Origin: Gimesia maris
GTDB lineage: Bacteria > Planctomycetota > Planctomycetia > Planctomycetales > Planctomycetaceae
Length of the DNA stretch: 64,000 nt
Assembly: GCF_008298035.1 (NCBI RefSeq)
Contig: NZ_CP042910.1
Location: forward strand, 7,750,001-7,814,000
Direction of reading: 5' to 3'
Numbering within the stretch: the first letter of the stretch is position 1; every line of letters starts with the position of its first letter. The position numbers and the translations under genes were made by a program. The notes below the pieces were generated by a model, which had not been told where the DNA came from, made no database searches, and saw only the letters and a list, made by a program, of their open reading frames with translations. Shown piece after piece: positions 3,385 through 39,715 of the stretch.

Positions 3385-3452
3385 GCGTCTCGCGATCTGT
3401 TATCCTCGGTCCAGACGGACCTGGAGACGCTGCAGTGGAACTGGAAACCGTC
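3385..3452 (-). repeat. 68-bp dispersed element, copy 1
   Basis: Read on the minus strand: a 22-bp arm (3452-3431) then a 46-bp core (3430-3385) bounded by GCGTCTC and GAGACGC. An inner GGTCC-GTCT-GGACC hairpin is intact. The outer stem extends to 9 bp (CAGCGTCTC/GAGACGCTG), the best-paired copy. It starts 17 nt after the stop of the exported oxidoreductase-like gene. Its 22-bp arm is the most diverged of the five. Confidence 0.8.
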
Positions 3453-3469
3453 CAGGAACATGAAGACCC

Positions 3470-4834
3470 TTATTGAGGAGCAGGATCCTCTCCGACAAAT
3501 TCCTGTGGTGGCGTCATTTCAGCAGTGATGACCTTCCATGAATCGCCCATTTCACGAAACTGATTGAAATTTTTCGGCGTGTAGGAAAATTCCAGTTCAG
3601 GCGTTTTCATCAAGGCCTGTCCCTTTTCAAAATAGGAGTGCATGGCGGCATCCAGTGCGCCGGTCATCAGCAGGGTGCGCTCACAGGGGTAGGGTTCTTC
3701 CTTGTGCACAAACAGATGTTGAATCGCATGTGAAAATGCCCGGAACAGGTTTCGGTTACCCCAGGGCCCCGGGAAGAACGTGGTCGCTTTCGGCTGCGCT
3801 TCACCTTTGACCTGGCAGGCAAAGTTCCAGCGGACGCCGTTCGCACCGATTTTCAGCATCGTGGCGCGAAATCCATCCTTGTATTCCAGCAGGATCCCAT
3901 GCGGTTCTGCTGCCCCTTCCGCGCCGATCGGATCGAACAGACCCCGCTTTTTCTTGCCCAGTTCCGCCTGCATGGCTGCTTCTGCCAGCTGCATGGACCA
4001 GCGTCCCTGGCGGCCGGCTTTGATCAGATCATCGCCTTTCAGAAACTGAACCGTTGAAATCCCCGTTTCGCCTCCTTTACGGAATTCGACCATCGACTGC
4101 AGGACTTCAAGTCCGTGGATATCGTATTTCTCAATCGGTCCTCCATGAATCGAGACCGCGTCTTCCAGTTCCGTGCCAGAGGGAATTTCCAGCGGAATCG
4201 TGCGTTGTGCCAGCGGAACCGAACTGCCGACCATCATCGGGAATTCGTACTTCCGCGAAGTGTCATACATTTCCCGGGCCCAGTCCCAGCGATAAGAAAA
4301 ATGTTTGTCACTGAAGACCGGGACAAAGCGTTTTGATTTCTCCATAACCGCCACGATTTCATCAAAGAACCGTTTGCGCGGGTACCTGGTCTGTCCGAAT
4401 TTGGTATCAGGATAATCGCCGTGCTCACCAATCGAAAGCACTGCGTCTACCGCCAGTTCATCACCGCCGAGAGTCAACGCGTCTCCGATTGTCTTATAAA
4501 AGGGGATCTCATATTTTTTGGCAATCCCCCGGGAGAGATCCCGGTCCGTAAACTGATCGCCGTAGAAAGAGACGACATCGCACTGTGGTTGCTGAAGCTT
4601 ACCGTTAAACAGGTACGGCCCTAAAAACGGATGCAGAATATGAAAGGCATGCGACAGATAAAAACACTGTGTGTAGATGGCAGCGACTTGCGGACGTTTG
4701 TTTTCCTCGGCGGCATGCAACGCCTGTTGCTGCCAGTTCAGGCCGGCAGTACCAGCAAAAGCGGCAGCACTCAGCTTTAACATTTCACGCCGGGAAAGAG
4801 AGGACAGGGACTGGTGAGAAAAGGTATCCGTCAT
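3470..4834 (-). CDS. Twin-arginine exported protein, possibly oxidoreductase-like; function unknown
   Basis: A 454-residue protein opening with a Tat signal: SLSRREMLKLSAAAFAGTAG, with the cleavage region near LHAAEE (about residue 42). The mature part contains AIYTQCFYLSHAFHIL and DAVLSIGEHGDYP, and resembles planctomycete proteins loosely related to Gfo/Idh/MocA oxidoreductases. The usual GxGxxG nucleotide motif is not evident, so redox activity is uncertain. Export through Tat implies that it folds, perhaps with a cofactor, before crossing the membrane. It is a single gene: the 68-bp element follows its stop, and the isocitrate dehydrogenase terminator lies upstream. Confidence 0.65.
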   Translation of the reverse strand: MTDTFSHQSLSSLSRREMLKLSAAAFAGTAGLNWQQQALHAAEENKRPQVAAIYTQCFYLSHAFHILHPFLGPYLFNGKLQQPQCDVVSFYGDQFTDRDLSRGIAKKYEIPFYKTIGDALTLGGDELAVDAVLSIGEHGDYPDTKFGQTRYPRKRFFDEIVAVMEKSKRFVPVFSDKHFSYRWDWAREMYDTSRKYEFPMMVGSSVPLAQRTIPLEIPSGTELEDAVSIHGGPIEKYDIHGLEVLQSMVEFRKGGETGISTVQFLKGDDLIKAGRQGRWSMQLAEAAMQAELGKKKRGLFDPIGAEGAAEPHGILLEYKDGFRATMLKIGANGVRWNFACQVKGEAQPKATTFFPGPWGNRNLFRAFSHAIQHLFVHKEEPYPCERTLLMTGALDAAMHSYFEKGQALMKTPELEFSYTPKNFNQFREMGDSWKVITAEMTPPQEFVGEDPAPQ

Positions 4835-4973
4835 GAGGTTGACTCCAGTGGTGGGCTAATTGAGGCGAGACTCAGTTTCCATCGTATCAAATCATATTGA
4901 TCTCTTCACCAGTTTTTTTCGGAAGCTCTACTATTTCTCTTAGATTTTTCCAGTCATCCTCAGGGACCGGGAA

Positions 4974-5014
4974 TAAAAAAACTGCGATGCAAAGCACAGG
5001 CTTCGCATCGCAGT
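4974..5014 (-). terminator. Intrinsic terminator after isocitrate dehydrogenase
   Basis: A 10-bp stem ACTGCGATGC (4981-4990) pairs with 5005-5014, topped by an inner AAGC/GCTT stem. On the minus strand it ends in a T-run (complement of 4974-4980). It lies 31 nt beyond the stop of the minus-strand gene. Confidence 0.85.
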
Positions 5015-5044
5015 GAGATCATCAATCTTCTCGTGTCTCAGGAA

Positions 5045-6217
5045 TTATCGCATTTTCGCACAGATGGCTTCTGCCATCTCCTGAGTTCCGACGGCGGTTG
5101 GATCGTTACGATCATCTTTCAGGTCGTAGGTCACGTCTTTACCTTCTTCAATCACGTCAGCAACTGCCTTGTCCAGCTTCGCAGCCGCTTCGTGTTCGCC
5201 GAGGTAATCCAGCATCATCTTACCGGACAGGATCAGGGCAACCGGATTCACTTTATTCTGCCCTTTGTATTTAGGAGCAGAACCGTGGGTCGCTTCGAAG
5301 ATCGCGGCTTCGGTTCCGATGTTCGAACCAGGGGCAACCCCCAGGCCACCCACCAGGCCGGCACACAGGTCACTCAGAATGTCACCGTACAGGTTGGAGG
5401 TCACGAGCACGTCGTACAATTCCGGTTTTTGCACCAGCTGCATGCACATGTTGTCAATCAGACGCTCATTATACTCGATGCTGCCACCACAGTCGGTCGC
5501 AATGCCTGCCAGCTTCGGATCGGCTTCGACGCCTTCTGACAGTTCATCCCATTCAAATTTAGCGCCGTAGGCTTTCGCGACAGCCCGTGTTTCATCATAC
5601 CACAGACCATCAGTGAACTTCATGATGTTTGCTTTGCAGATCGAAGTCACAGACTGGCGTTTGTTGTCGACTGCATATTTGAAAGCGTAGTTACAGATAT
5701 CGCGAGTACCCTGGTAAGACATTGGCTTGATACTGACGCCGGTCTCATCAAGGGGAGTATTGATCTTTTTACCCGTCGCGAATTCGTTGATCTTTTTGAT
5801 CAATTCCGCTGTTTTTTCCTGACCCGCCTGAAACTCAACGCCGGCATACAGGTCTTCTGTGTTTTCTCGTACCACGACCAGATCGACATTGGAGTCGGCA
5901 AAGTAGGTCCGCACACCTTTGTAGGTTTTACAGGGGCGGATGCAGGCATACAGGCCCAGTTCCTGTCGCAGGAACACGTTCACACTGCGGAAGCCTTTTC
6001 CGATGGGTGTGGTGATCGGTGCTTTCAAGGCGATTTTGTTGGCCCGGATCGAATCCATCACACGATCTGGAACGCCACCTTCAGCTTCAATGACTTCGAT
6101 TCCACATTCCTGAACATCCCAGTCGATTTTCACGCCAGTGGCATCAACACATTTTCTGGTTGCCTCGGCGATTTCCGGTCCAACTCCATCACCCGGAATT
6201 AGTGTGACTTTATACAT
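5045..6217 (-). CDS. icd: NAD-type isocitrate dehydrogenase (isocitrate/isopropylmalate DH family)
   Basis: 390 residues from the preferred ATG at 6217, which has GAGGA 5-6 nt upstream and begins [16 protein letters not shown]. An ATG 24 nt earlier is in frame but lacks a ribosome site. The beta-decarboxylating dehydrogenase signatures are the N-terminal [10 protein letters not shown], the substrate motif [18 protein letters not shown] (the S-x-N-x-x-L-R pattern of isocitrate rather than isopropylmalate enzymes), [12 protein letters not shown], and the C-terminal cofactor region [13 protein letters not shown]. It oxidises isocitrate to 2-oxoglutarate in the TCA cycle. The residues after ATHGSAP suggest an NAD rather than NADP preference, but this is not certain. 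Confidence 0.88.
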
Positions 6218-6435
6218 CGTTTCCTCTAATACTTCTGACAAAAAGGGAATGCGACCAGGTTCTCAAGTGTTATGAATACCACGCTACGAGCCTGCTGACT
6301 CTTGAAACCAAAGGCCATACTGGTTGATACTGATTACTTAGCTCACAGACAAGCAGTGACCGTATCAAAACGGAAATCGCTTTTCAACTATACGCGATAG
6401 CCCGCGCCTACTTTTCACATCAATCAGGGATTCTC

Positions 6436-6753
6436 ATGATCCAGCGTATTTTCAGGAATTACCTGCTCCGACACCAGAACAGAGCCAACCAGATCCTGCA
6501 CCTGATTGGTGTCCCGCTCACTTTTGGGGGACTGATCGGATTTGGCATCGCGGGAAACTGGATTTATGCGGGAATGGCATTTTTTGCTGGATATGCCTTA
6601 CAGTTTCTGGGTCACGCCATCGAGCGGAATGATGCGGGCGAACTCATTTTGATCAAGAAACTACTTGGGAAACCCTACACGGAATTCGGACCTGAGACTC
6701 AAATTCAACAGAATTTTGACCATTCGTCAAAAAAGTCAAGTTGTAACGATTAA
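6436..6753 (+). CDS. Mpo1-like (DUF962) small membrane protein
   Basis: 105 residues. The motif RHQNRANQILHLIGVPL near the N-terminus and GHAIERN after two hydrophobic segments (about 27-45 and 47-62) match the Mpo1/YGL010w-like family. Yeast Mpo1 is an iron-dependent dioxygenase of 2-hydroxy fatty acids using conserved histidines; here His13, His22 and His60 or so are the candidates. A bacterial role is not established. AGGGA six nt before the ATG supports the start. Confidence 0.8.
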   Translation: MIQRIFRNYLLRHQNRANQILHLIGVPLTFGGLIGFGIAGNWIYAGMAFFAGYALQFLGHAIERNDAGELILIKKLLGKPYTEFGPETQIQQNFDHSSKKSSCND

Positions 6754-6945
6754 ATCGCCGATACCGAATGTAGTGATTCTACCAACTAGACTCCCTGCCC
6801 TGCGCTCTTGCGACTATTTTGCGACAAGGTTGTCTTACAGCAGTTGGTAATTTCTCCCTGAAAGTACTATCGATTATGAACTTAAGTGATTATGAACATA
6901 CACTTTATGCCCATAATCGTCGTTCATGTCTTGAAGGATAAAAAC

Positions 6946-9249
6946 ATGAACCTTCGCCAGAAGTTACACCAGTTTTTCTGTGGATGCCTGATTACCAGTC
7001 AGCTTGTTGGCTGTCACGGTCTGGGTACCGATACCGATCTTCATTATCTCGGGGACAAAGAGCTCCAGTATTATGAGGATGTCGCCACTAAAATTGAATA
7101 CCCGGCGGTCTATGAAGAGACACCGGAAGAGATCACATTTTCAGGGAAACCACGGACGCTGACGGATCGTTCGCAGGATGAAATCTGGGATTTACCCCTG
7201 ATGGACGCAATTCATCTGGGGCTGGCCAACAGTGAGGTCATCCGTGTTTCCGGTACGCTGGGAACCAACGGCAACGCACTGTTAAATAATCCGGATGGCA
7301 CCCCTTCGATTTATGACCCTTCCATCCAGGAAACCAACGTGCTGTTGGGTGGATCGCGTGGTGTCGAGGCGGCATTGTCGGCATTTGATACTACATTTAC
7401 TGCGAACATGCTCTGGGGCCGCTCCGAACAGGTGCAGAACAGCCCGTTCTTTGGTGGTATTCCCGGCGGTACACTCACACAGGAAACCGGACAATTTCAG
7501 TCTGGTCTGTCCAAAACATTCGCGAACGGCGGCCAGTTTGCCCTGTCTCATAACTGGAACTACACAGGCAGTAACGCCACCAGCCAGCTGTTTCCTTCTA
7601 CCTATGCCGGAAACGCGGGACTCTCTTATCGCCAACCGTTCCTGGCAGGAGCCGGCGTTGATTACACCCGCATTGCCGGTCCGATTGGTTCCGGATTCAC
7701 CGGAATTACCGGGGTCAGCCAGGGGGTCGTGATTGCCCGCATCAACAATGACCTGGTACTGGCAGATTTCGAGCGAAACGTACGGAACCTCATTTCTGAT
7801 ATTGAAGAAAGTTACTGGCAACTTTACCTGGCATACCGCCTGTATGATACACAGGTGGTCGCCCGGAACTCTGCACTTCGCAGCTGGCGGGAAGCCCATG
7901 CAAAACTGGAAGCCGGCGGTACCAGAAACTTCAAACCCGCTGATGAGGCACAGGCGAAAGACCGTCTGTTTGAAACACAGTCACTGGTTCAGTCAACTCG
8001 CAGCGATATCTACACAGCAGAGAGCCGCTTTCGACGGCTGGTTGGTCTGCCGGTGAATGATGGAAAAATCATTCGACCGATCGATGACCCGATTGCAGCA
8101 GAATTCACTCCTGACTGGAGTATGTGTCTGACTGAAGCCCTCGTACATCGCGTCGAATTACGTAAACAGAAATGGAACATTAAAAGTCTGGAATTCCAGA
8201 GAATGGCTGCCACCAGTCTGACCAAGCCACGGTTGGACCTGGTTTCCAGCTACCAGGTGAATGGCTTCGGCGATCGTCTGTTGAGCCAGAAAAACACCGA
8301 TGGCGTCACTTCACAGGGTCTGCATAGTGCTTATGGAACCCTGATGGATAATGACCAGGACAGCTGGACTGTTGGCTGGGAATTCAGTATGCCCCTTGGT
8401 TTCCGCTCGGCACATGCCCAGGTGGAAAACCTCGAATTCCGCCTCTCGAAAGCACGAGCCGTGCTCAAAGCACAGGAAATGGATGTCAGCCAGGAACTGG
8501 CGATCACCTTTCAGGACCTGACCAAAAACTATGCGACGGCACAGTCCAACTTTAACCGCTGGCGTGCGGCCCGCAGACGTGTGGAACTGTTTGACGCCGA
8601 AGTTCAGGCAGGAACGACAACACTCGATACACTGTTACGTGCCCAGTCCTCACTGGCTGCCGCCGAAACCGAATACTACCGCTCACTGGTGGCCTACAAC
8701 GTGGCGATCAAGAACCTCCACAAATGGAAAGGCACACTGCTGCAACATAACAATGTGCATCTCATGGAAGGTGAATGGTCTCCGGTTGCCTATCAACAGG
8801 CTGTGCGACGTGCCTGGGCCAGAACACACGGAGTCGACGCTCATAAACTGCGAAGCAAACCGGAACCATTTGTTTCGGATGGCTACATCGGAGAAGTGGG
8901 TGTCATGCCTGCAGCCGAAGGTCAATCGTTCTCCTCAGGACAGGAAGGGATGACACCGGATATCCTGCCAGTTCCGGAACCGGGAATGACCCCGGAATAT
9001 GCTCCCCCGGCACCTGCCACGTCAGGCGAACCGGAAGCACGTCTGCAACTCAACGAAGATACTCAAAGTCGAAACCCGTTTGTCCAGTCCGACATCGAGA
9101 ACGCGGTGAAAATCGCGCTCGAGTCGGAACCACCGGCGCCTCAGCCCAGGATTAAACAGGTTTCTTCCACACAGCAAGAGCTGCCGATTGCTGACACTGA
9201 GAAAAACCTTGAGGTTGAGTTCATGCCCGCCACCAGTTTTGTAGAGTGA
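6946..9249 (+). CDS. TolC-family outer-membrane efflux lipoprotein
   Basis: 767 residues from the ATG at 6946, which has GAAGGA eight nt upstream; an in-frame ATG at 6886 would add 20 residues and hide the signal. The signal ends in a lipobox LVGC (about residue 22), so the protein is probably a lipoprotein. The central region has the paired long helices of TolC-type efflux channels, for example DLVLADFERNVRNLISDIEESYWQLYLA around 270-300 and a second helical half at 490-600. About 150 Pro/Glu-rich residues follow the channel domain, which is unusual. No pump or adaptor gene adjoins it. A 68-bp element starts five nt after the stop. Confidence 0.8.
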   Translation: MNLRQKLHQFFCGCLITSQLVGCHGLGTDTDLHYLGDKELQYYEDVATKIEYPAVYEETPEEITFSGKPRTLTDRSQDEIWDLPLMDAIHLGLANSEVIRVSGTLGTNGNALLNNPDGTPSIYDPSIQETNVLLGGSRGVEAALSAFDTTFTANMLWGRSEQVQNSPFFGGIPGGTLTQETGQFQSGLSKTFANGGQFALSHNWNYTGSNATSQLFPSTYAGNAGLSYRQPFLAGAGVDYTRIAGPIGSGFTGITGVSQGVVIARINNDLVLADFERNVRNLISDIEESYWQLYLAYRLYDTQVVARNSALRSWREAHAKLEAGGTRNFKPADEAQAKDRLFETQSLVQSTRSDIYTAESRFRRLVGLPVNDGKIIRPIDDPIAAEFTPDWSMCLTEALVHRVELRKQKWNIKSLEFQRMAATSLTKPRLDLVSSYQVNGFGDRLLSQKNTDGVTSQGLHSAYGTLMDNDQDSWTVGWEFSMPLGFRSAHAQVENLEFRLSKARAVLKAQEMDVSQELAITFQDLTKNYATAQSNFNRWRAARRRVELFDAEVQAGTTTLDTLLRAQSSLAAAETEYYRSLVAYNVAIKNLHKWKGTLLQHNNVHLMEGEWSPVAYQQAVRRAWARTHGVDAHKLRSKPEPFVSDGYIGEVGVMPAAEGQSFSSGQEGMTPDILPVPEPGMTPEYAPPAPATSGEPEARLQLNEDTQSRNPFVQSDIENAVKIALESEPPAPQPRIKQVSSTQQELPIADTEKNLEVEFMPATSFVE

Positions 9250-9254
9250 GCACT

Positions 9255-9322
9255 GACTGTGTTCCGTGTTGCTATAGCGTCTCCAGGAACAATTGAAGCG
9301 AGTATAGCAGATTGGGAGACGT
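9255..9322 (+). repeat. 68-bp dispersed element, copy 2
   Basis: The arm (9255-9276) begins GACTGTGTTCCG and the 46-bp core is 9277-9322. The outer stem is GCGTCTC/GAGACGT, closed by a G-T pair. The inner hairpin is not preserved; CAATTG occupies its place. The second half matches copy 1 closely. It starts five nt after the TolC-like stop codon. Confidence 0.8.
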
Positions 9323-9688
9323 TACCGCCAAAAGCGATGCATCCTGAAACAACAAATGCACGCATTGCCCTGATTGCACAGCTTCCGCTGACTGCGAATT
9401 TGGTCCTTCAATTTTTTGAAAAGACCTTTACGAATTTCAGTATGCATTTCCATAAACAGGTGCTAGTTTTAAACATAACTTTCGTTTGATTCATCGCTGA
9501 CGCTTGTTTCACACAAAAATACCAGTATCGATGTCCATCTCCATCGATTGTTGTTTCCTGATGTTGAGCTGTCTTTGCGCTGACGATACTTCCATTTTGT
9601 CAGACCTGCGCAGACAGTTCACACTGAGTTTTCGGGATTGAACACCCGCCACTGACCAGGCCTGTGGAAAGCATACAAAAGATAATCA
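9323..9688. other. Non-coding spacer
   Basis: AT-rich spacer between the repeat element and the WYL regulator. I see no convincing ORF, hairpin with T-run or RNA gene in it. The promoter of the regulator presumably lies here. Confidence 0.4.
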
Positions 9689-10678
9689 ATGGTGGCTGGA
9701 CGAATTCCTCGTCTTCTAAGACTGATTGCGCTGTTACAGTCGGGACGTGTTTACAACTCTGCACAACTTGCCAGCGAATGTGAAGTCAGTCGCAGGACCG
9801 TCTTTCGCGACCTGAAAACGCTTCAGGAATCGGGGATCTACGTTCTGTACGATGATGAGAAACAGGGATATCAGCTTCCCTGGAGAACCATTGTCCCGTT
9901 TAAAGACCTCACCTTCGAAGAAGTCCTTGCCCTGTTTGTGCTCAGCCAGGATCTCGACAAAACCATCGTGGGGTTGCCACTGGATGGCATTGCACATACC
10001 GCGTCCGCCAAAATTCTCAGCAGTTTACCCGACGCATTGCGCGAGCAAGTGATTGAAGCGGCTCAGTCCATATCTATCTGGCTCACACCCTGCAATCCGT
10101 CGCTGCGGAACGAATTGCACTATAAAACCATTCTGAAAGCAGTCACATCAAAACAAAACGTGCGGATTCAATATGTCTGCCCGAACGAGCAAAAAACAGC
10201 CTCTACCATGCTGAGCCCGTACCATATGCTCTATTCGAATCGCCAGTGGTATGTAGTAGGACGCTCCTCCGTCGATCGGGGGATCAAAGTATTTCCGATT
10301 CAGAAAATGATCAAATCTGAACTGCTCGACGAAAAATTCAAAAAACCCTCCCGCTTTAAGCTCGACCGCTATCTCGACCATTCCTGGGATCCTGTGCGGC
10401 AGTCATCCAGAACCGTTTCTGTGAAAATTCGCTTTGAAAGCCAGGCTGCTCAGACTGTCTCACAGATCATCTGGGACAAGTCACAGGAAATCCGTAAGCT
10501 CAAAGGGGGTGCCATCGAATTCCGGGCACGCGTTGGTGACCTGGAACAGATGACTGACTGGCTGCTGAGTTTCGGGAACCAGGCGGAAGTGATCTCCCCC
10601 CCCTCACTGCGAAAACTGATCAAAACCCGTATTTCTGAAATGTCACAGATTTACAGTAAGAAATCGAGCCGGAACTGA
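9689..10678 (+). CDS. HTH-WYL domain transcriptional regulator
   Basis: 329 residues. An N-terminal DeoR/HTH_11-type winged helix (about 5-60; LIALLQSGRVYNSAQLASEC then SRRTVFRDLKTLQESG) precedes a WYL domain (about 145-220) with YHMLYSNRQWYVVGRS, and a WCX C-terminal region. WYL regulators sense ligands, often nucleotides or single-stranded DNA, and control varied genes including defence and DNA-damage functions. No defence genes are near, and it stands alone between two non-coding spacers, so its targets are unknown. Confidence 0.88.
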   Translation: MVAGRIPRLLRLIALLQSGRVYNSAQLASECEVSRRTVFRDLKTLQESGIYVLYDDEKQGYQLPWRTIVPFKDLTFEEVLALFVLSQDLDKTIVGLPLDGIAHTASAKILSSLPDALREQVIEAAQSISIWLTPCNPSLRNELHYKTILKAVTSKQNVRIQYVCPNEQKTASTMLSPYHMLYSNRQWYVVGRSSVDRGIKVFPIQKMIKSELLDEKFKKPSRFKLDRYLDHSWDPVRQSSRTVSVKIRFESQAAQTVSQIIWDKSQEIRKLKGGAIEFRARVGDLEQMTDWLLSFGNQAEVISPPSLRKLIKTRISEMSQIYSKKSSRN

Positions 10679-11181
10679 TTTCAAAATCAAGGCGAACTTC
10701 TTTGTCAATCAGCTGTCTAAACTCACACATCACCCACAAACAGCTCTCACAGATTTTGATAAAGATCGCGCATGTACACTCACATCGACTTCACAGCCGA
10801 TTATTCTGTGAAACCTCTCAAAATCCCGCATCAAACTACTGACCTGCCTCACCATTAGGTTTACTATTTCAGGGTAGGAAATCCGTACCTCAACGCAGGA
10901 AATCTGCTAATTTCCGCTTGAAGAGCGCCCGAGAACGTGTGTCTGACCGCAGCCATTGCGTATGATGTTACCAGTCACACAGATTCAAAACTCCCCGTGG
11001 AGGGAACCAGATCCCGTCCCGGGAATATCCCGTTATCCAGACCAGAGCAATCACCGGTTTCAGAAACGAATCCGCAAATGGCTCTGCTATCAGTTAAGAC
11101 CCCGTTTTACGGGTAGTAAGAAGTGGAGATTCTCTCCACAGACAGACAAAAGATTAAATTGAAGTGAGGAAAGACAAAATC
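10679..11181. other. Non-coding spacer upstream of hisI
   Basis: Roughly 500 bp without a credible gene. A 68-codon frame (10956-11162) has no ribosome site or family features. A small imperfect hairpin, GCAGGAAAT (10895-10903) with ATTTCCGC (10910-10917), and a near repeat of TAGGAAATCC just before it are the only structure I see. It may hold the hisI promoter. Confidence 0.35.
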
Positions 11182-11667
11182 ATGTCAGATGGAATTCAAT
11201 TCGCGGCACGGACAACCGTCGAGCAGGTGGAAGAAGGAAATGAACTGGCCCCCAAATTTGATCAAGACGGTTTAATTCCTGTCGTAACGACCGACTTTAC
11301 GTCGGGTGAACTGCTCATGCATGCTTATATGAATGAGGAAGCACTCAAAAAAACCATCGAACTGGGCGAAGCCGTTTACTGGAGCCGCAGCCGACAGGTA
11401 CTCTGGCACAAAGGTGCCACCAGCGGGCTCGTACAGAAAGTCAAAGCTCTGCTGATTGACGACGACCAGGATACCATCTGGTTAAGGGTCGATGTCATGG
11501 GAGGCGGAGCCAGCTGCCACGTAGGCTATCGTTCCTGTTTCTACCGCCGCGTGCCCGTGGGTGAAGAGACGAAAGAAAAAGGCCTGGCACTGGAGTTCAC
11601 CGAAACAGAAAAAGTATTCGACCCCAAAGATGTCTACGGAGACGCTCCCAATCCGACCAAACTGTAA
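11182..11667 (+). CDS. hisI: Phosphoribosyl-AMP cyclohydrolase
   Basis: 161 residues from the ATG at 11182 (GTGAGGA upstream); an in-frame GTG at 11164 is an alternative. It opens the adenine ring of phosphoribosyl-AMP in histidine synthesis. Signatures are [41 protein letters not shown], the acidic metal motif DDDQD and the zinc-site cysteines of [13 protein letters not shown]. There is no fused hisE domain. Only two cysteines are present in the whole protein, so the third zinc ligand seen in studied enzymes must be something else. The next gene follows after 25 nt on the same strand. Confidence 0.93.
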
Positions 11668-11692
11668 ACTGTACCACGAACACAGGTGACCT

Positions 11693-13096: not shown

Positions 13097-13150
13097 TAAT
13101 ATCAATCAGCGTATTACGAATTACGTTTATTACGAGGTCGAAATAATATC

Positions 13151-13651: not shown

Positions 13652-13684
13652 GCCTCGCGGAATCCAGTCGACAACAAACTCAAC

Positions 13685-29613: not shown

Positions 29614-29634
29614 ACGCCTGACCGTTTATGAAAT

Positions 29635-29673: not shown

Positions 29674-29689
29674 GTGTATCTCGATTTCT

Positions 29690-30736: not shown

Positions 30737-31056
30737 GGCACGTACCTCCTGGTTGTGCTCAAACTTTCAAAACGGATCGTTAAAATACGTATCGGAAAGT
30801 TGAGACCAAACACCATCAAGTGAAATGCAACAATTGGCCCAGATCACATTGCGCCCCGGCAGAGTCTGCCTGAACTACCCAATCTTCCCGACTTTATAAC
30901 CATAAGTCAGAAAAAGAGGTGATGCATAATTGAAACATGCAACAACACAGGTAATTTGCACAATCTATGAAATCTATGTAGTCTGTATCGAATATAGCGA
31001 CTATACAGAACACATGCGAGCAAATTTAATTCCCGTGGACAAATTGACCCGAAAAA
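30737..31056. other. Non-coding spacer
   Basis: AT-rich spacer holding the desaturase promoter region (30737 upward) and the 3' flank of the sulfatase. I see no gene, repeat copy or strong terminator. Confidence 0.35.
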
Positions 31057-32538: not shown

Positions 32539-32705
32539 GATGGCAGCCCTCCAGGATATCAAATGTAACAATGTTGATATCAAGCATGATTCATCCCCAT
32601 TCGCATTTCAAGCTGTACTCTGATCACGGCAGAGTTTTTAGCGAAAAACGGGGAGGCCAGAGATGTGACCTGAATACAGACTGGAATACATCACATATAA
32701 CTATC

Positions 32706-32773
32706 GCGTCTGTCAATCTAATCTACTCGGTTCAAATGGACCTGGAGACGCATTTATAAAACTGCACACAGTC
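32706..32773 (-). repeat. 68-bp dispersed element, copy 3
   Basis: On the minus strand the arm (32773-32752, GACTGTGTGCAG) starts with the last base of the slyX stop codon; the core is 32751-32706. The outer stem has six pairs (GCGTCT/AGACGC). The inner hairpin has one mismatch (GGTCC/GAACC). Confidence 0.8.
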
Positions 32774-33006
32774 TAATAATGAGGTGGTTTGTCCTGCAGC
32801 GGATCGGGACCCTCGTCTTCCACTTCCAGCGCTCCCATACGCGAATCCAGGAGTTTGAGAGACTTTCCCAATGTATCCACGATGGCGTTCTGCTGCAGTA
32901 CAGCTTCATTCAACTGTTCGACATCGTGTTGCAGGTGCATCAAGACGGATTCTACCTGAGTTAAACGTGCGATGAGTTCTTCCAGACGGGAAGTATTCTC
33001 AGTCAT
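32773..33006 (-). CDS. slyX: SlyX family protein
   Basis: 77 residues: a coiled-coil (LEELIARLTQVESVLMHLQHDVEQLNEAV) and the family's C-terminal signature PLQDKPPHY. Its molecular role is unknown in any organism. The coiled coil suggests oligomerisation. Confidence 0.88.
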   Translation of the reverse strand: MTENTSRLEELIARLTQVESVLMHLQHDVEQLNEAVLQQNAIVDTLGKSLKLLDSRMGALEVEDEGPDPLQDKPPHY

Positions 33007-33123
33007 AGTGAAAATCGCCTTTCAGGGAAGCTGTTTTTCTTATACAGTTTGTGGGTTAAAATACCATCTGGATTTTATTGACTCGCGTTCGACTTTGAAA
33101 CAACCTGACAGGTCCGATTCCCC

Positions 33124-34647
33124 ATGAATCCACGATTTCGGTACTCGCTGCTGCTGCTTATAGTTGCCTGCGTCATCATCTTCGGAGATGCTCACGATTC
33201 CAAAGCAGCCGAACATCACTTCCAGGTCCGTTTCCTGAAATCGATTCATCCTGAGCCTTTCACGGGCCGCGTTTATCTGATTTTTACCAAATCCGGACGT
33301 GAGCCGCGGTTGGGACCTTCCTGGTTCCAACCGGAGTCCTTCATTGCCTGTGATGTGACCAACTGGCAGCCAGGCGAACCGCTCGAGCTGGGACCTGAAA
33401 CCAAAGGACTACTCTCATATCCCCAGCCATTAGCAGAAATGGATCTGGCCGGATATCGCGCGCAGGCGGTCGCACGCTTTAACAACTCAAATCCCAAAAT
33501 CGGCACCGCCCCCGGAAACGGATTTAGCCAGACTCATCAGCTGAACGGCGGCCTGGTCGCAAACATCCCCTCCTTCATCATTGATCAACTGGTGCCGGAA
33601 AAAACGATTAGCGAAACCCAGTGGATCAAATACTTCCAGATGCGATCTCCTCTTTTGTCTCAGTTTCACGGTCAGGAGACAGGCCTGGAAGCCAGCGTGA
33701 TCTTGCCGCAAAGTTATTATCAGCAGCCTCAACGAAAATATCCGGTCATCTATTCCATTCCCGGGTTTGGCGGCGATCATCTACGCAGCCTTCCTCAAGC
33801 ACCGATTGCAGAACGAAATGTCGGCGGCGTTGAATTCATCCGCGTACTTCTCAATCCGCAATGTCGCTGGGGGCATCATGTCTTTGCTGATTCCGCTACC
33901 AATGGACCTGTCGGAAAAGCGTTTACCACCGAATTTATACCAGAGCTGGAAAAAGCATTTCGAGCCATCCCCCATTCACGCGCGCGATTTTTAACCGGAC
34001 ACTCTTCCGGCGGATGGTCGTCACTCTGGCTGCAGGTCACCTATCCCACTGTCTTTGGCGGCACCTGGAGCACCGCTCCCGACCCGGTTGATTTTCGCGA
34101 CTTCCAGCAGATCAACATCTACGAACCGGGGAGCAACGTCTATCGAGATGCGAACAACCAGCCCCGCCCGATCGCCCGCAGAGGAAATCAACCCATCCTC
34201 TGGTTCGAACCTTTCGCGAAAATGGAACAGGTGCTCGGGCATGGCGGACAGCTCCGTAGTTTTGAAGCGGTGTTCAGTCCCCGCGGTGCTGACGGAGAAC
34301 CGCTGAAGCTCTACGACTGGGAAACCGGCACAATCAACGCAGAAGTGGCAGATGCCTGGAAAGCATATGATATTCGCCTGATCCTGGAAGCTAACTGGAA
34401 ACAGCTGGCACCCGAACTCGCGGGAAAAATTCATGTCTTCATGGGAGACCAGGACACCTTCTACCTGAATGGTGCCACCCAGTTGCTCAAGCAGACGCTG
34501 GAACAACTCGATGCCGACGCCGTGGTGGAGATTCACCAGGGGAGAGACCATTCAAATTTATTGAGTCGTGAATTGATGCTGCGCATCCGCGCAGAAATGG
34601 TTCAGGCTTTTCTCAAGTACCAGGCTGAAATCCAGCCGGCAGAATAA
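33124..34647 (+). CDS. Secreted alpha/beta-hydrolase, esterase D-like
   Basis: 507 residues with a signal peptide (YSLLLLIVACVIIFG). An N-terminal beta domain of about 150 residues precedes an esterase fold: KYPVIYSIPGFGGDH (oxyanion side), nucleophile elbow TGHSSGGWSSLW, an Asp candidate in MGDQDTFYL and His in HQGRDHSNLL. Family members cleave carbohydrate or siderophore esters. No partner gene is adjacent; it converges with the ThiF/MoeB gene, with six bp between the stops. Confidence 0.82.
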   Translation: MNPRFRYSLLLLIVACVIIFGDAHDSKAAEHHFQVRFLKSIHPEPFTGRVYLIFTKSGREPRLGPSWFQPESFIACDVTNWQPGEPLELGPETKGLLSYPQPLAEMDLAGYRAQAVARFNNSNPKIGTAPGNGFSQTHQLNGGLVANIPSFIIDQLVPEKTISETQWIKYFQMRSPLLSQFHGQETGLEASVILPQSYYQQPQRKYPVIYSIPGFGGDHLRSLPQAPIAERNVGGVEFIRVLLNPQCRWGHHVFADSATNGPVGKAFTTEFIPELEKAFRAIPHSRARFLTGHSSGGWSSLWLQVTYPTVFGGTWSTAPDPVDFRDFQQINIYEPGSNVYRDANNQPRPIARRGNQPILWFEPFAKMEQVLGHGGQLRSFEAVFSPRGADGEPLKLYDWETGTINAEVADAWKAYDIRLILEANWKQLAPELAGKIHVFMGDQDTFYLNGATQLLKQTLEQLDADAVVEIHQGRDHSNLLSRELMLRIRAEMVQAFLKYQAEIQPAE

Positions 34648-34653
34648 CATGTC

Positions 34654-35694
34654 TCAACTGCCGATGTAGCGGGCATAGATGGTCTTGGCAACTGCAGGGT
34701 CATCGGTACCTTTGATGATCGCCCTGCCGTCACGAAACAGGCTGATTTCATAATCAGGATTTTTCAGATTCAGCCGCAGCAGATAAGGGTTCACGTCAAC
34801 GCTGCCTGAGTTCTGTAATTTCAGTGCCAGTTCTTCAAACGCAATTTTGCCTTTGTCGGCGGGAGAAACCTGAACCGCATTGCGACCACAAAGACGTGTC
34901 GTACGGGACCCCTGTTCTCCGTTCAGCCAGATTCGTTCCCCCTGGTGACAGGCTTTGCAGCCCCCTTTCTCCCTCAGATCGGCAAGACTCATCTGCCGGA
35001 ACGATCCTTCCCAGACATCGACGACCGTCAGAACCGGTTTGATCTGTTCGACCTGGCCGGAAAGCAGCTTGATCGCATCGACGGCTTCCAGCGACGCAAT
35101 CACGTTGACGGTTGGACCCAGAATGCCCGCGGTATCACAGGTCTCTGTACTGCCGGGTTCGGGTGCGGAATCAATCAGGCACCGCAGACATGCCGACTTG
35201 CCTGGCAGAATCGTCATGGTCTGCCCGGTACTACCGATGCAACCACAGTAAATCCAGGGAATCCCCAGTTCCAGTGAGACATCATTGATCAGGTAACGGA
35301 CTTCAAAATTATCCGTGCCATCCAGAATCAGATCGACGTTTTCCGCCAGCCTCAGGATGTTGGTATGGTCAATGTCTTCTACGACAGCCTCAATCTGTAC
35401 TTCACTGTTGATTTTTTTCAGTTTTTCGACAGCCGCGATCGCTTTGGGAAGTTTCGCAGCGACATCGTTCTCATCAAACAGAACCTGTCGCTGCAGGTTA
35501 CTGATCTCCACGAAATCCCGGTCCACGATTTTGATCTGACCAACACCCGCTCTGACTAGAGTTTCTGCCAGAACGGTCCCCAGCGCACCACAGCCGCATA
35601 ACAGCACACTGCTCTGCATTAAACGCGTCTGACCTGCTTCGCCCAGTTCTGAAAAAAGCACCTGGCGACTGTAACGTTCTAATTCGGGTTTCAT
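34654..35694 (-). CDS. ThiF/MoeB/HesA family adenylyltransferase
   Basis: 346 residues. The E1-like fold shows ERYSRQVLFSELGEAGQ, the ATP site LLCGCGALGTVLAETL, DRDFVEISNLQRQ, DGTDNFEVRYLIND and the zinc pairs CLRC and CKAC. These enzymes adenylate the C-terminal glycine of ThiS, MoaD or similar sulfur carriers. The last 80 residues are not rhodanese-like; they resemble a small domain with FRDGRAIIKGTDDP, as in other stand-alone MoeB-like proteins. Thiamine, molybdopterin or cysteine synthesis are all possible; no carrier gene is adjacent. Confidence 0.87.
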   Translation of the reverse strand: MKPELERYSRQVLFSELGEAGQTRLMQSSVLLCGCGALGTVLAETLVRAGVGQIKIVDRDFVEISNLQRQVLFDENDVAAKLPKAIAAVEKLKKINSEVQIEAVVEDIDHTNILRLAENVDLILDGTDNFEVRYLINDVSLELGIPWIYCGCIGSTGQTMTILPGKSACLRCLIDSAPEPGSTETCDTAGILGPTVNVIASLEAVDAIKLLSGQVEQIKPVLTVVDVWEGSFRQMSLADLREKGGCKACHQGERIWLNGEQGSRTTRLCGRNAVQVSPADKGKIAFEELALKLQNSGSVDVNPYLLRLNLKNPDYEISLFRDGRAIIKGTDDPAVAKTIYARYIGS

Positions 35695-35808
35695 TGCCTG
35701 TCTGTCCGTCTGGTTCCAGTGAAGAATATCTGCTGTTATTTTAGCAGGCGGACACTGGGATAACAGGTATCCAGACTCAGAACGGAAAAGATCCTCTATC
35801 GCACATGG

Positions 35809-35847
35809 AAAAAAGGCCTCACCGATACCTTCAGCGAGACCTTTTTT
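35809..35847 (-). terminator. Intrinsic terminator after the zinc-ribbon membrane protein
   Basis: AAAAAAGG (35809-35816) pairs with CCTTTTTT (35840-35847), with inner CTC/GAG pairs; on the minus strand it ends in a T-run 23 nt after the stop. Confidence 0.8.
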
Positions 35848-35869
35848 GTGTTACGGATTCCGTGCTGAT

Positions 35870-37036
35870 TCAATCCAGACTGATTTCCTGCAGGACTGAG
35901 ACAAACTGCGGCTTGATCAGTCGATGAGTCGTATCCGTCCAGCCTTCAGAACTCACTTTCAAAGTGATTCTGGGCTTGATCCAGGTCGCAACCTGGCTGG
36001 TTTTTACAAAAGGCTGTTTCTGTTCCAATTGGGGCAGACGTTTCTGCCATTCCAGTCGAATGTCTTCGGGAAGTTCACTGCCTCGGATATAACCTGCATA
36101 CACCAGCTGCTTGTTATAGGAAGAAGCTAACAGCACTGCGTCAATGGTTCCATTTGGCAGAGCCGAATAGCCGACGAGCAGACAGTCAGACTCCAGGCGT
36201 GGCGCCGTTTCAGGTTCTGCCACCGGTTCCGGCTCTGGTTTGGGTTCTTCTTCCGGTGCAGGCATTGCAGCCTGAGCAACGGCAGCGGCTTTTGCTTTGG
36301 CAGCTGATGCTGCGGAATCTTCTTCTTCAGTACCACCGGCAAAGTCATTTAAAGCATCTTCGATATTGTCTGCGCCACCTTCACCATCCGCGGATTTGGA
36401 CTGATCAACGACTGATGACAGCAGATTGACATTGGCTGTTTTTTTAACACCCCAGTCTTTGAACAGAGAATTGAATTCGAAACCGCCGACGATGGCAAAC
36501 GCACCCACAACCAGCGTCAGCCCCCAGACAGCCAGATCCAGTTTCCAGGCACCTTGAGGAAAACGGCGAATCGCGGGTCGCCAGATTTTGAATGGCGTTA
36601 CGATGATACTCAGGATACTGAAATCTGCCGAACGGGAGACCGCATTCAGATAAGCGATAAAATGACCGACTAAAAACATCATCAGACCAACCGTCGCCTG
36701 GGTGATTGTCCACAGACAGAGTTGACCAGGATCTTCGCAGTAAAAACGCCCGCCCACACTCAAACCGATTGCGGCCACTGTTCCCACACCCAACACCCAA
36801 CCCCAGGCGGGAATCAGTTCCCAGATATTCTGAGGCTGTGGTTGCTGTTCCAGTGACTGGCCCTGCATGTCAGTCTGACCGACACATTTCCCCAGCTTGG
36901 GATAGAAACCACATTGGGGGCACCACGAAGAGAGCCCCCAAGGCTCATACGTACCACATTCCGAGCAGGTTGGCTGCGCCTGTAACTCTTGAAACTGTTG
37001 CAGAAGCTGGTCTGTATCTTGTTTTGTATCTGGCAT
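35870..37036 (-). CDS. Zinc-ribbon membrane protein with C-terminal DNA-ligase-like OB domain
   Basis: 388 residues. An N-terminal zinc ribbon (C24-x2-C27, C39-x2-C42) precedes about three hydrophobic spans (WGWVLGVGTVAAIGL, TVGLMMFLVGHFIAYL, AVWGLTLVVGAFAIVGG). A low-complexity Ala/Glu/Pro linker (about 220-280) leads into a C-terminal domain from about 284. That domain reads CLLVGYSALPNGTIDAVLL, QLVYAGYIRGSEL and WIKPRITLKVSSEGWTD, closely recalling the OB-fold end of ATP-dependent DNA ligases (GGY, VGxVGTG and WVxPxLVxEVxFxEWT patterns). No adenylation domain is present, so it cannot be a ligase. Which side of the membrane the domain faces is not clear. Confidence 0.65.
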   Translation of the reverse strand: MPDTKQDTDQLLQQFQELQAQPTCSECGTYEPWGLSSWCPQCGFYPKLGKCVGQTDMQGQSLEQQPQPQNIWELIPAWGWVLGVGTVAAIGLSVGGRFYCEDPGQLCLWTITQATVGLMMFLVGHFIAYLNAVSRSADFSILSIIVTPFKIWRPAIRRFPQGAWKLDLAVWGLTLVVGAFAIVGGFEFNSLFKDWGVKKTANVNLLSSVVDQSKSADGEGGADNIEDALNDFAGGTEEEDSAASAAKAKAAAVAQAAMPAPEEEPKPEPEPVAEPETAPRLESDCLLVGYSALPNGTIDAVLLASSYNKQLVYAGYIRGSELPEDIRLEWQKRLPQLEQKQPFVKTSQVATWIKPRITLKVSSEGWTDTTHRLIKPQFVSVLQEISLD

Positions 37037-37234
37037 GGCTCAGTGACTTTTTGAAGTTGGCGGAGTATGTAGATCAACACAATTTGTTGCGAGACTCCGT
37101 GAACCTTAGCTTACAAAACACCACTTCAACGAACTTTGACTTCGATAAAACACCACAGAGGAATGAAAAACTGCACACCGCACTCCAGACAATCCCTGCA
37201 ATCCCTACAGGCAGTCTGTAAAAATGATGGTCTA

Positions 37235-37269
37235 TAAAAAAAGCCGACGTACCCAAAGGCACGTCGGCT
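37235..37269 (-). terminator. Intrinsic terminator after the FKBP gene
   Basis: AGCCGACGT (37242-37250) pairs with ACGTCGGCT (37261-37269), followed on the minus strand by seven T; 43 nt after the stop. Confidence 0.9.
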
Positions 37270-37311
37270 GAATGTCTGATGCTGTCCGATCAAGTGATCG
37301 GTCGATGCAGA

Positions 37312-38028
37312 TCAGTTGACCTTAAGCAGTTCGATGTCGAAGATCAGTACTTCGTTGGGACCGATATCAGGTCCTGAACCACGCTCGCCATAGGCCAGAT
37401 CGCTGGGAATAAACAGCTGCCATTTATCCCCTTCTTTCATCAGCTGTAATGCTTCTGTCCAGCCACTGATCACGCCACTGACAGGAAATGTAGCGGGCTC
37501 GTTGCGTTTGTAAGAGCTGTCGAACTCAGTACCATCGATCAGAGTACCACGATAATGTGTGGTAACACTGTCTTTAGGACCGGGAGTTTTTCCCTTACCC
37601 GATTTGATCACCTTGTACTGCAGTCCGCTCTTGGTGGTTTTCACACCTTCTTTTTTCGCATTGGTTTCCAGAAACTTTTTGCCCTTGGCCACATTTTCAG
37701 CCTGGGCTTTTTTCATCTTGGCTTCCTGCTGCTGACGCAGTTCCTGCTGGAAAGCAAGCAGCGTGGCGCGGATTTCATCCTCTGTCATCTGGGGTTTCTG
37801 CTTGGTCATGGCATCCACGATGCCTTTCGCCAGAACTTGCGGATCCAGATCGAGCTGATCCCGCATCAGGTTCTGACCGAGATTAAAGCCAATTCCATAA
37901 CTGACTTTCTGTTTCTGGTCTTTGAGACCTGATTTACCGGAAGCTGCTTTTTCGTTTTGTGCATTAGCCGAAGCGGAAAAACCGAACGACGCGATACATA
38001 AACAGGCAGCGAGATGCCATTTCGACAT
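37312..38028 (-). CDS. Exported FKBP-type peptidyl-prolyl isomerase (FkpA/Mip-like)
   Basis: 238 residues from the ATG at 38028 (AAAGG upstream), which places a signal peptide at the start (WHLAACLCIASFGFSASANA); the longer frame to 38178 would bury it. A helical dimerisation domain (about 35-125, VSYGIGFNLGQNLMRDQLDLD) is followed by the FKBP domain: VTTHYRGTLIDGTEFDSSY, VISGWTEALQLMKEGDKW, IPSDLAYGERG and VLIFDIELL. It assists folding of envelope proteins. A dedicated terminator follows. Confidence 0.92.
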   Translation of the reverse strand: MSKWHLAACLCIASFGFSASANAQNEKAASGKSGLKDQKQKVSYGIGFNLGQNLMRDQLDLDPQVLAKGIVDAMTKQKPQMTEDEIRATLLAFQQELRQQQEAKMKKAQAENVAKGKKFLETNAKKEGVKTTKSGLQYKVIKSGKGKTPGPKDSVTTHYRGTLIDGTEFDSSYKRNEPATFPVSGVISGWTEALQLMKEGDKWQLFIPSDLAYGERGSGPDIGPNEVLIFDIELLKVN

Positions 38029-38303
38029 AAGAAAAACCTTTCGGTGAACAATGAAAACGAGTTTAAACGGGAGAGACCATACGAGTCGGCGAGATTCGGC
38101 TGGCTGCGTTTGCCCCCGAATTAGCGGGTGATGTATTGCATGGCGTCCTCTTGCGCAGAGGATCTTTGACAATTTCAAAGTATCGATTATATGAGACTAT
38201 CAAGGGAAGTGTCTACAATAAAGCACCCTTCTCCTTGAAAACAGGGCTTTCTCCTGCAGTTTGTCCCGAGAAAACTCGCTGAAGCGCATCCCGTTTCACC
38301 ATC
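38029..38303. other. Spacer upstream of the FKBP gene
   Basis: Contains a short hairpin CCTCT/AGAGG near 38140-38160 and presumably the FKBP promoter; no other feature is visible before the 68-bp element at 38304. Confidence 0.35.
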
Positions 38304-38371
38304 GCGTCTTTCAATCGATTAGACTCGGTCCAAATGGACCCGGAGACGCTACAGCATAGTGGGACACAGTC
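38304..38371 (-). repeat. 68-bp dispersed element, copy 4
   Basis: On the minus strand the arm (38371-38350, GACTGTGTCCCAC) starts eight nt after the dapL stop; the core is 38349-38304. The inner hairpin GGTCC-ATTT-GGACC is intact, and the outer stem has six pairs. Confidence 0.82.
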
Positions 38372-38379
38372 CGGAAGCC

Positions 38380-39612
38380 TCAGCTGACCACTTTCTGAAA
38401 ACGGGTAACCGCTTCGTTGATATTATCTCTGGTGTTGAAAGCACTTAACCGGAAATAACCTTCCCCGGAAGCACCAAAACCACTGCCGGGAGTCCCCACC
38501 AGATGAGCTTTCTGCAGCAGTTCGTCGAAAAATTCCCAACTGGTCGATTCACCGGGTGTTTTCAACCAGACATAAGGAGCATTGACGCCGCCATAAACAG
38601 AGATTCCCACCGATTCCAGCCCTTCGCGAAGAAGTCGTGCATTTTCCAGATAGAAGGAAATCAGGCCCTGGATCTGCTCCCGGCCCTGTTCGGAATAGAC
38701 GGCTTCTGCCCCTTTCTGGATGATATAGGAAACCCCATTGAACTTCGTACAATGACGGCGGTTCCAGAGTGGGTGAATCTCTGCCGGCTCTCCACTGGCA
38801 GTCGTCCCCTTCAGTTGTTTGGGAACAACTGTGAACGCACAGCGGGTTCCTGTGAAACCGGCATTTTTGCTGAAGCTGCGAAACTCGATCGCCACTTCTT
38901 TAGCACCCTCGATTTCATAGATGGAATGAGGAATCTCTGGATCGGTAATAAATGCTTCGTAGGCAGCATCAAACAGAATGATCGATCCGTTGGCCCGGGC
39001 ATAATCGACCCACTGTTTCAAGGTTTCTTTTGTCGCCACAGTTCCCGTGGGATTATTGGGATAACAGAGGTAGATCAAGTCGACCGGGGACTCGGGCAGG
39101 GGAGCCACAAAATTGTTTTCGGCGGTCACCGGGAGATAGGTCAGACCAGCATAGCGGCCACTTTCATCTGCAGCGCCCGTGCGGCCAGTCATCACATTCG
39201 TATCAACATAGACAGGATAAACCGGATCCGTCACAGCGACTTTGTTATTGGCGCCGAAGATGTCCAGAATGTTTCCGGTATCACACTTGGAACCATCAGA
39301 GACAAAGATTTCGTCTGCTGAGATATCAACGCCCCGCGATTGAAAATCGTTCTTTGCGATCGCTTCCCGCAGAAATCCATAACCCTGCTCAGGACCATAG
39401 CCACGAAAGCTGCCCGCATCACCCATCTCATCAATGGCAGCATGCATGGCTTCACGAATCGCAGCCGGCAGTGGCTCAGTCACATCTCCGATTCCCAGTT
39501 TAATGACGGGGGCATTCGGGTTCTCTTCGCAGAATTTATTGACGCGACGTCCGATTTCCGGAAACAGGTAACCCGCTTTGAGCTTGAGATAGTGATCGTT
39601 AATAAAAGCCAT
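38380..39612 (-). CDS. dapL: LL-diaminopimelate aminotransferase
   Basis: 410 residues, a class I/II PLP aminotransferase with the DapL-specific start [21 protein letters not shown]. Also present are [28 protein letters not shown], the PLP lysine in [16 protein letters not shown] and [10 protein letters not shown] near the end. It converts tetrahydrodipicolinate straight to LL-diaminopimelate, bypassing the acyl pathways for lysine and peptidoglycan. DapL is typical of plants, cyanobacteria, Chlamydiae and planctomycetes. Copies of the 68-bp element flank the gene in inverted orientation. Confidence 0.96.
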
Positions 39613-39647
39613 TTCTCGCCTCGAATCTTGATAAATGCTGAACGTAA

Positions 39648-39715
39648 GACTGTGTCCCGTTTTACTGTAGCGTCTCCAGAACCATTTGGACCGGGTCTAA
39701 TTGCCTGGCAGATAC
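39648..39715 (+). repeat. 68-bp dispersed element, copy 5
   Basis: The arm (39648-39669, GACTGTGTCCCGTTTT) and core (39670-39715) read on the plus strand, starting 36 bp upstream of the dapL start. It is inverted relative to copy 4. The right end has decayed (CAGATAC instead of GAGACGC) and the inner hairpin is broken. It is the only copy not directly downstream of a gene in sense. Confidence 0.8.

What the first reader, a model, noticed from the sequence alone, without database searches (positions are those of the whole stretch)
3385..39715. A 68-bp dispersed element in five gap-free copies
Copies at 3385-3452(-), 9255-9322(+), 32706-32773(-), 38304-38371(-) and 39648-39715(+) align over 68 bp without a single indel: a 22-bp arm starting GACTGTGT (diverged in the first copy) and a 46-bp core from GCGTCTC to GAGACGC. 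Outer ends are inverted repeats. An inner GGTCC-4nt-GGACC hairpin is intact in two copies and decayed in the others. Constant length with base decay looks like a family that spread by copying whole units, as REP/MITE-type elements do, or a conserved RNA 3' motif. I do not recognise it as a named family.
Basis: seen in the sequence. Interest (0 to 1): 0.78.

Follow-up and report, generated by a model that had tools for sequence, protein, structure and literature searches.

The report
IS630-type mini-transposon family in Gimesia
The repeat is a 90-bp DNA parasite without genes, estimated at a few hundred mostly intergenic copies in a planctomycete genome, whose ends resemble those of a full-length transposon found in sister species; it is a new example of a well-known kind of element.

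Summary
The five copies are real, but the unit is larger than 68 bp. It is a 90-bp imperfect palindrome between TA dinucleotides, TA|GACTGTG…GCGCTC|TA. It belongs to a family of roughly 200-300 copies in this genome (26 copies in a 780-kb even sample). It was found in 17 of 17 genomes of the genus searched (Gimesia, by named records) and in 0 of 23 outside it.

A 1,027-bp IS630-family (Tc1/mariner) insertion sequence in two sister genomes has 28-bp ends that match the element's right arm (25-26 of 30) and share the TAGA-N18-TAGCG layout of both arms. The window's own genome holds only an internally deleted 519-bp remnant. An exact empty site, a near-identical young set in one species and a head-to-tail array with period 92 show mobility.

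So it is a MITE, most likely mobilised in trans by an IS630-type transposase. The REP/RAYT reading is not supported (no copy in 12 RAYT-like loci), nor is the conserved-RNA reading (no covariation above controls, no Rfam match, no overall slower evolution than flanks).

Unexplained: the base after the right TA is G in 26 of 26 young copies while the base before the left TA varies; and genomes rich in copies show no intact cognate transposase.

The parts
3363..3452 (-). MITE copy 1 (90 bp)
   Evidence: nhmmer hit to all 90 positions; no element at the orthologous place in 4 of 4 aligned genomes: G014, G006, G011, G013; 17 bp after the stop codon of the ORF 3470-4834(-)
9255..9344 (+). MITE copy 2 (90 bp)
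   Evidence: shared with G006, absent in G014, G011 and G013; G009 could not be aligned there; 5 bp after the stop of the ORF 6886-9249(+) (outer membrane efflux protein)
32684..32773 (-). MITE copy 3 (90 bp), left border TTAG kept
   Evidence: shared with G014, a left-end remnant only in G006 and G011; the TAG at its left end closes an open frame of 82 codons
38282..38371 (-). MITE copy 4 (90 bp)
   Evidence: no element at the orthologous place in 9 of 9 aligned genomes; 8 bp after the stop of the aminotransferase ORF 38380-39612(-)
39648..39737 (+). MITE copy 5 (90 bp)
   Evidence: shared with G011, absent in 8 of 9 aligned genomes

Best explanation
[quoted passage not shown] It codes for nothing. 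Its two ends (TAGA-N18-TAGCG, inverted) serve as binding and cutting sites for an IS630-type transposase made elsewhere, which cuts it out and joins it into a TA, best inside YTAG, leaving TA on both sides (shown: ends, TA borders, empty site, related IS; inferred: binding and cut-and-paste, from what is known of the family). Copies survive mainly between genes, often exactly at a stop codon, because both ends bring their own TAG and so renew the stop of a gene they enter (inferred from position). In the window's species the sampled copies are old and no intact transposase was found, so the family is probably immobile there now.
For: High copy number with constant ends; 17 of 17 genomes of the genus, 0 of 23 outside. 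Full-length IS630-family element of 1,027 bp in G016 and G001 with 28-bp terminal inverted repeats, DDE_3 114 bits against a cut-off of 28.6 and NCBIfam IS630 143 bits against 100. Its four ends match the element's right arm at 25-26 of 30 and the left arm at 17-19 of 30; the two arms match each other at 20 of 30. Best matches in 100 random 3.6-kb stretches with known copies masked: right arm 15-18 of 28, left arm 15-18 of 28 save two at 25, which may be unmasked copies. TAGA-N18-TAGCG occurs in 20 of 30 related planctomycete IS630 loci, at both ends in 10 (3 of the 30 are in-genus or this IS itself at most: L251, L256), against 13 matches in 1.18 Mb of background that includes copies of the element. 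Exact empty site: copy in SAT87 (L079) against own-genome L013, one TTAG kept, no gap at the joint; the three-copy array of G014 (L141) starts at a TA present without it in G000 and G011. Array period 92 = 90 + one shared TA. Own-genome 519-bp deletion derivative of the IS. 38 of 42 sampled copies intergenic against 2,308 of 20,000 random placements; in 14 of 42 the border stop codon closes an open frame of at least 60 codons, in 12 of these at least 170.
Against: The left arm is only moderately like the IS ends. Copy number and intact IS do not go together: G001 and G016, which hold the intact IS, show 3 and 18 matches, while the copy-rich G000 and G014 show no intact cognate transposase and G011 only broken ones. 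The base outside the right TA is G in 26 of 26 young copies (22 of them G014, 3 G011, 1 G000), that outside the left TA is C 13, T 11, A 2; a symmetric TA insertion does not predict that. TA borders rest on young copies, mostly of another species; window copies have mostly lost them.
Confidence: 0.9

Rival explanations
1. A REP/REPIN-type palindrome moved as single-stranded DNA by a Y1 (RAYT) transposase, which would join the element 3' of an NTAG tetranucleotide without target duplication.
For: Palindromic, about 95 bp, intergenic, hundreds of copies; left tetramer NTAG variable while the right CTAG is constant, which fits a directional target; Y1_Tnp genes in 6 of 6 genomes tested. The empty site alone cannot tell this from a TA duplication.
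Against: No copy of the element in any of the 12 fetched Y1_Tnp loci (of 20 matches; the other 8 were not fetched); the RAYT units of one group are bordered by another repeat; the ends match an IS630 transposon instead.
Confidence: 0.05
2. A conserved structural RNA (3'-UTR motif, terminator or processing site) kept by selection.
For: The consensus top strand folds far better than the bottom strand (-36.0 against -23.7 kcal/mol); copies are common next to stop codons. A count over all pairs, flanking ones included, is above shuffles (30 against 20.9 +/- 4.0, reached by 9 of 500). In two of six shared loci the element changed less than its flanks (0 of 88 against 7 of 408; 2 of 88 against 36 of 406).
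Against: For the 30 inner pairs: 16 double-kept changes, null 13.9 +/- 3.1, slid partners 10-15. Over all six shared loci 72 of 525 element positions differ against 259 of 2,435 flank positions; in the three window loci the elements changed faster. Among tandem neighbours 14 copies lie on the genes' strand and 10 against it. No Rfam match.
Confidence: 0.04
3. Chance similarity among unrelated palindromes.
For: None found.
Against: 0 hits in simulated sequence of the same size against 26 copies.
Confidence: 0.01

Closest known systems
RUP (repeat unit of pneumococcus) / IS630-Spn1
   Same: 107 bp, no gene, about 110 copies, ends like those of a resident IS630, TA target, thought to move in trans (PMC3049150 and PMC2229807, passages seen).
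   Different: Other phylum; here the parental IS was not found intact in the window's genome. RUP letters were not compared.
Correia/NEMIS elements (Neisseria) and Nezha (cyanobacteria)
   Same: Small TA-bordered MITEs with 24-26-bp inverted repeats in Correia (PMC2229807, PMC3049150, passages); Nezha proposed to be moved by ISNpu3-like elements (PMC3049150, passage).
   Different: Host; sequences were not compared. Promoter, IHF and RNase III roles reported for Correia (PMC10969869, passages) were not tested here.
IS630 / ISY100 (Tc1/mariner family)
   Same: TA target duplicated on insertion (PMC2170065, passages); preference of IS630 for TA in CTAG (title of Tenzen and Ohtsubo 1991 in its reference list; that paper was not held). 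TA inside CTAG/TTAG here too.
   Different: Those are autonomous; this element has no transposase.
REP / REPIN with RAYT
   Same: Many intergenic palindromes in one genome; GTAG- and CGTC-tagged REPs are reported from Planctomycetes (PMC3733652, passages).
   Different: No RAYT association seen, and IS630-like ends.

Membership tests
IS630-type MITE | Terminal inverted repeats matching those of a full-length IS630 in the same clade | tested here: met
   Right arm 25-26 of 30 to the intact IS ends, left arm 17-19 of 30, shared TAGA-N18-TAGCG layout
IS630-type MITE | TA on both sides, target TA duplicated | tested here: inconclusive
   TA at both borders in 26 of 26 young copies (selected as at least 92 of 96 like a consensus that includes the borders) and an exact empty site with one TTAG: fits, but a TA duplication cannot be told from a TAG one, or from none with an element-borne CTAG
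IS630-type MITE | Many copies of one length, no transposase inside | tested here: met
   90 bp; 26 copies in 780 kb
IS630-type MITE | Presence/absence between related genomes | tested here: met
IS630-type MITE | Moved in trans by the IS transposase | not testable with these tools
   Needs an assay
REP/REPIN (RAYT-dependent) | Copies flank a RAYT gene | tested here: not met
   0 of 12 fetched Y1_Tnp loci (of 20 matches), about 1.5 kb flanks each
REP/REPIN (RAYT-dependent) | GTAG or CGTC tag at the foot of the palindrome | tested here: not met
   Left tetramer CTAG 13, TTAG 11, ATAG 2, GTAG 0 of 26 young copies; GTAG 3 of 104 copies at least 80 of 96 like the consensus
Conserved RNA motif | Compensatory changes in the helices | tested here: not met
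   Inner pairs 16 against 13.9 +/- 3.1 in shuffles; with the flanking pairs 30 against 20.9 +/- 4.0
Conserved RNA motif | Match to a described family | tested here: not met
   Rfam
RUP | Sequence identity to RUP | not tested
   RUP letters were not fetched

The most novel reading that the evidence does not exclude
The element moves with a fixed polarity at its target: the IS-like right end is always joined next to G (TA|G) and the diverged left end next to a free base, so an IS630-type transpososome with two unlike ends reads the target in one direction; the TAG carried at both ends lets the family spread into stop codons without harm, giving the genus hundreds of genes with a movable hairpin at their 3' end.
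Probability: 0.15. Interest if true: 0.5.

Novelty: new member of a known kind. Interest (0 to 1): 0.35.

Why it matters
It adds a high-copy MITE family with an identified IS630 relative from planctomycetes; I saw no such family described in the listings (searches list only 15 of 178 and 12 of 293 papers). A young set in one species, an old decaying set in the window's species and intact IS copies in others make the genus a natural series for studying how MITEs amplify and outlive their transposase. The renewal of stop codons by the TAG ends is a simple way by which such an element can be tolerated next to genes.

Tried and rejected
RAYT as mover: not supported. An IS5-type transposase (DDE_Tnp_1, 249 aa) that lies beside two young G014 copies: the sequence next to the element's CTAG (agggtatccgaaaac, aggtggtccgaaaac) is unlike the element's ends, so it looks as if it uses the CTAG as a target; its own ends were not mapped further. 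Four-base CTAG duplication: rejected, since left and right outer bases differ in 13 of 26 young copies. RNA covariation: a first count looked significant (43 against 27.1 +/- 4.8, 0 of 200 shuffles); it included copies picked by an exact left-arm pattern. Without these it was 30 against 20.9 +/- 4.0 (9 of 500), 13 of the 30 in the four outermost pairs, which lie at or outside the borders; without the five outermost pairs it was 16 against 13.9 +/- 3.1. A left-arm 'conservation' was the same selection effect; in 23 unselected gap-free copies both arms vary alike (0.149 each), the middle more (0.213). A search for an IS630 whose ends match the left arm better gave at best 21 of 28, at one end (L254); masked random stretches reach 18 save two at 25. 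Empty sites of L126 could not be aligned at base level in the intergenic part. Part of the output was cut, so for copy 3 I report only G014, G006 and G011. The first null (60 windows, median 15, highest 24 of 28) still held copies of the element; one search masks known ones. In one search I left out a pair from one and the same record (L055/L089), duplicate and reciprocal rows, and L092/L024 (30 of 84 element and 81 of 398 flank differences, gapped, orthology unclear); three of the six pairs kept came from copies fetched for likeness to the family, which favours slow change.
Full report
What was reported. Five gap-free 68-bp copies. They are there, at the stated places and strands, with 46-53 of 68 identical bases in each pair. 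Extending the alignment shows that the copies go on for 22 bases past the reported end; the unit is 90 bp, GACTGTGTCCAG…TTAAATGTGATGCGCTC, bordered by TA on both sides in well-kept copies.

How many and where. One copy as a query hits 40 places, itself included, in the window's own 7,816,689-bp genome (40 of 120 first-look candidates were scored). In 39 evenly spaced 20-kb stretches (780 kb) a profile finds 26 copies of at least 25 bits, about 260 per genome; in 20 such stretches of a sister genome (G014, 400 kb) it finds 11, about 216 per genome; in simulated sequence of the size of the 780 kb it finds none. Among 40 genomes the element is in 17 of 17 of the same genus, own included, and in 0 of 23 others; the number of matches per genome runs from 1 to 25 with at most about 22 candidates scored in the rich ones, so these are lower bounds. 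An exact 24-base piece of the left arm occurs in 32 stretches of named genomes: 21 of Gimesia sp. SAT87, 8 of Planctomycetaceae bacterium HKST-UBA69, 2 of uncultured Gimesia, 1 of a Planctomycetota MAG; contig lengths identify SAT87 with G011. The window's genus is therefore taken to be Gimesia.

Anatomy. Both ends are TAGA-N18-TAGCG in inverted orientation, with a 20 of 30 match between them; the consensus folds into one long imperfect hairpin, better on the top strand (-36.0) than on the bottom (-23.7 kcal/mol, RNA parameters). In 26 young copies (at least 92 of 96 like the consensus; 22 from G014, 3 from G011, 1 from the own genome) the left border is CTAG 13, TTAG 11, ATAG 2 and the right border CTAG 26. 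G014 holds a three-copy head-to-tail array with a period of 92 bases, i.e. 90 plus one shared TA.

Mobility. The flank-joined sequence of a SAT87 copy (L079) matches the window's own genome (L013) over 384 bases with a single TTAG at the joint. At the orthologous places of the window copies, copy 4 is absent in 9 of 9 genomes, copy 5 in 8 of 9 and copy 1 in 4 of 4; copy 2 is shared with G006 and copy 3 with G014. The array of G014 begins at a TA that exists without any copy in G000 and G011. G014 has copies 98-99% like the consensus, whereas none of the 26 sampled copies of the own genome, and 1 of 11 of G014, reaches 100 bits.

The parent. Among transposase loci, some IS630-type ones carried a piece like the element's right end. 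A search with the first reading frame, which hit 6 of 17 genomes, led to two complete elements, in G016 (L200) and G001 (L203): 1,027 bp, 28-bp inverted repeats, two overlapping frames around a run of eight A, the first with HTH_23 and HTH_Tnp_IS630, the second with DDE_3 (114 bits, cut-off 28.6) and NCBIfam's IS630 transposase model (143 bits, cut-off 100). Their ends match the element's right arm at 25-26 of 30 and its left arm at 17-19; over all eight IS ends examined the ranges are 23-26 and 17-20. The own genome has a 519-bp derivative of this IS with both ends and the middle missing (G000:C1:2649092-2649610) and no DDE_3 match. Of 30 related IS630 loci from planctomycetes (two of them, L251 and L256, from Gimesia), 20 have TAGA-N18-TAGCG at one end at least and 10 at both; 1.18 Mb of background holds 13 such matches, copies of the element included. 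The base before the TA is C or T at the ends printed for most of them.

What does not fit neatly. The genomes with the intact IS have few copies (3 matches in G001, 18 in G016), while the copy-rich G000, G014 and G011 have no intact cognate transposase that I found. The parent may have been lost after the bursts, or a relative of it not found here did the work. The constant G beside the right TA is not explained by a symmetric TA insertion.

Where copies sit. 38 of 42 sampled copies (26 own genome, 11 G014, 5 window) lie between predicted ORFs of at least 100 codons; random placement gives 2,308 of 20,000. ORFs were called with a simple greedy rule, not with a trained gene finder. In 14 of 42 the TAG or TAA at an element border is the stop codon of an open frame of 60 or more codons, in 12 of these of 170 or more; no chance level was computed for this. 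Since both ends read TAG inwards, an insertion into the TA of a stop codon renews the stop.

Not shown to be a conserved RNA. With pattern-selected copies and the five outermost pairs removed, 16 double changes keep a pair in 69 copies, against 13.9 +/- 3.1 in 500 shuffles and 10-15 with partners slid by 1-3; with the outermost pairs it was 30 against 20.9 +/- 4.0. Over six shared loci the elements differ at 72 of 525 positions, their flanks at 259 of 2,435; the element was slower in two, level in one and faster in three, the latter all window copies (rows left out are listed under Tried and rejected). Rfam has no match in the window or in three loci with good copies.

Not shown to be a REP. 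Y1_Tnp genes are in 6 of 6 genomes (20 matches); the 12 fetched loci hold no copy. Three loci of one RAYT group share a mobile unit whose left border, AAGGTGTCAGGAACC, recurs inverted at the right border in two.

Literature. RUP of S. pneumoniae is the closest described case: 107 bp, ends like IS630-Spn1, TA target (PMC2229807 and PMC3049150, passages). ISY100 inserts almost only into TA and duplicates it (PMC2170065, passages). The preference of IS630 for CTAG is cited from a title in that paper's reference list. A 2024 review of prokaryotic MITEs has no occurrence of 'planctomyc' or 'IS630' in its text (PMC10969869, term search). Searches for Gimesia with repeat and transposable (1 paper), planctomycet with MITE terms (15 of 178 listed), Planctomyces maris with transposase terms (12 of 293 listed), Gimesia with insertion sequence (1) and planctomycet with miniature inverted (10) showed no description of such a family in their listings; of these papers I saw passages of three (PMC3733652, PMC9208149, PMC10969869). 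ISfinder was not available.

Verdict. An IS630-type MITE family, new as a family as far as I could see, ordinary as a kind.

Noticed in passing
L111, L112, L117 (G000 and G014): A RAYT-like gene (NCBIfam REP_Tyr_transpos, 63 bits, below its cut-off of 80) lies in a shared unit of about 720-750 bp with AAGGTGTCAGGAACC at the left border in three of three and its inverse at the right in two of three; a 45-bp inverted pair of the same repeat stands near L112 and L117. It may be a REP system of the genus, but GTGTCAGGAACC has 0 exact matches in the 780-kb sample and in the window.
   Followed up: partly
G014:C1:7208528-7208932 and 3890489-3890893: Copies of an IS5-type element (DDE_Tnp_1, 249 aa) lie right beside young MITE copies, apparently inserted at their CTAG end.
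   Followed up: partly
L198 and L199 (G001, G012), L202 (G011): The IS630 copies of three species share nearly the same surroundings in the stretches printed. This suggests a recently exchanged mobile region; not tested.
   Followed up: no
L200 and L203, positions 1843-1850: The IS630 transposase is split in two overlapping frames around a run of eight A, as in programmed frameshifting; not tested.
   Followed up: no
window 1-64000: The window holds 5 copies where the sample density of the own genome predicts about 2.
   Followed up: no
L036 (G000:C1:368500-374500): Two copies of the element lie 223 bp apart in opposite orientation, left ends facing.
   Followed up: no
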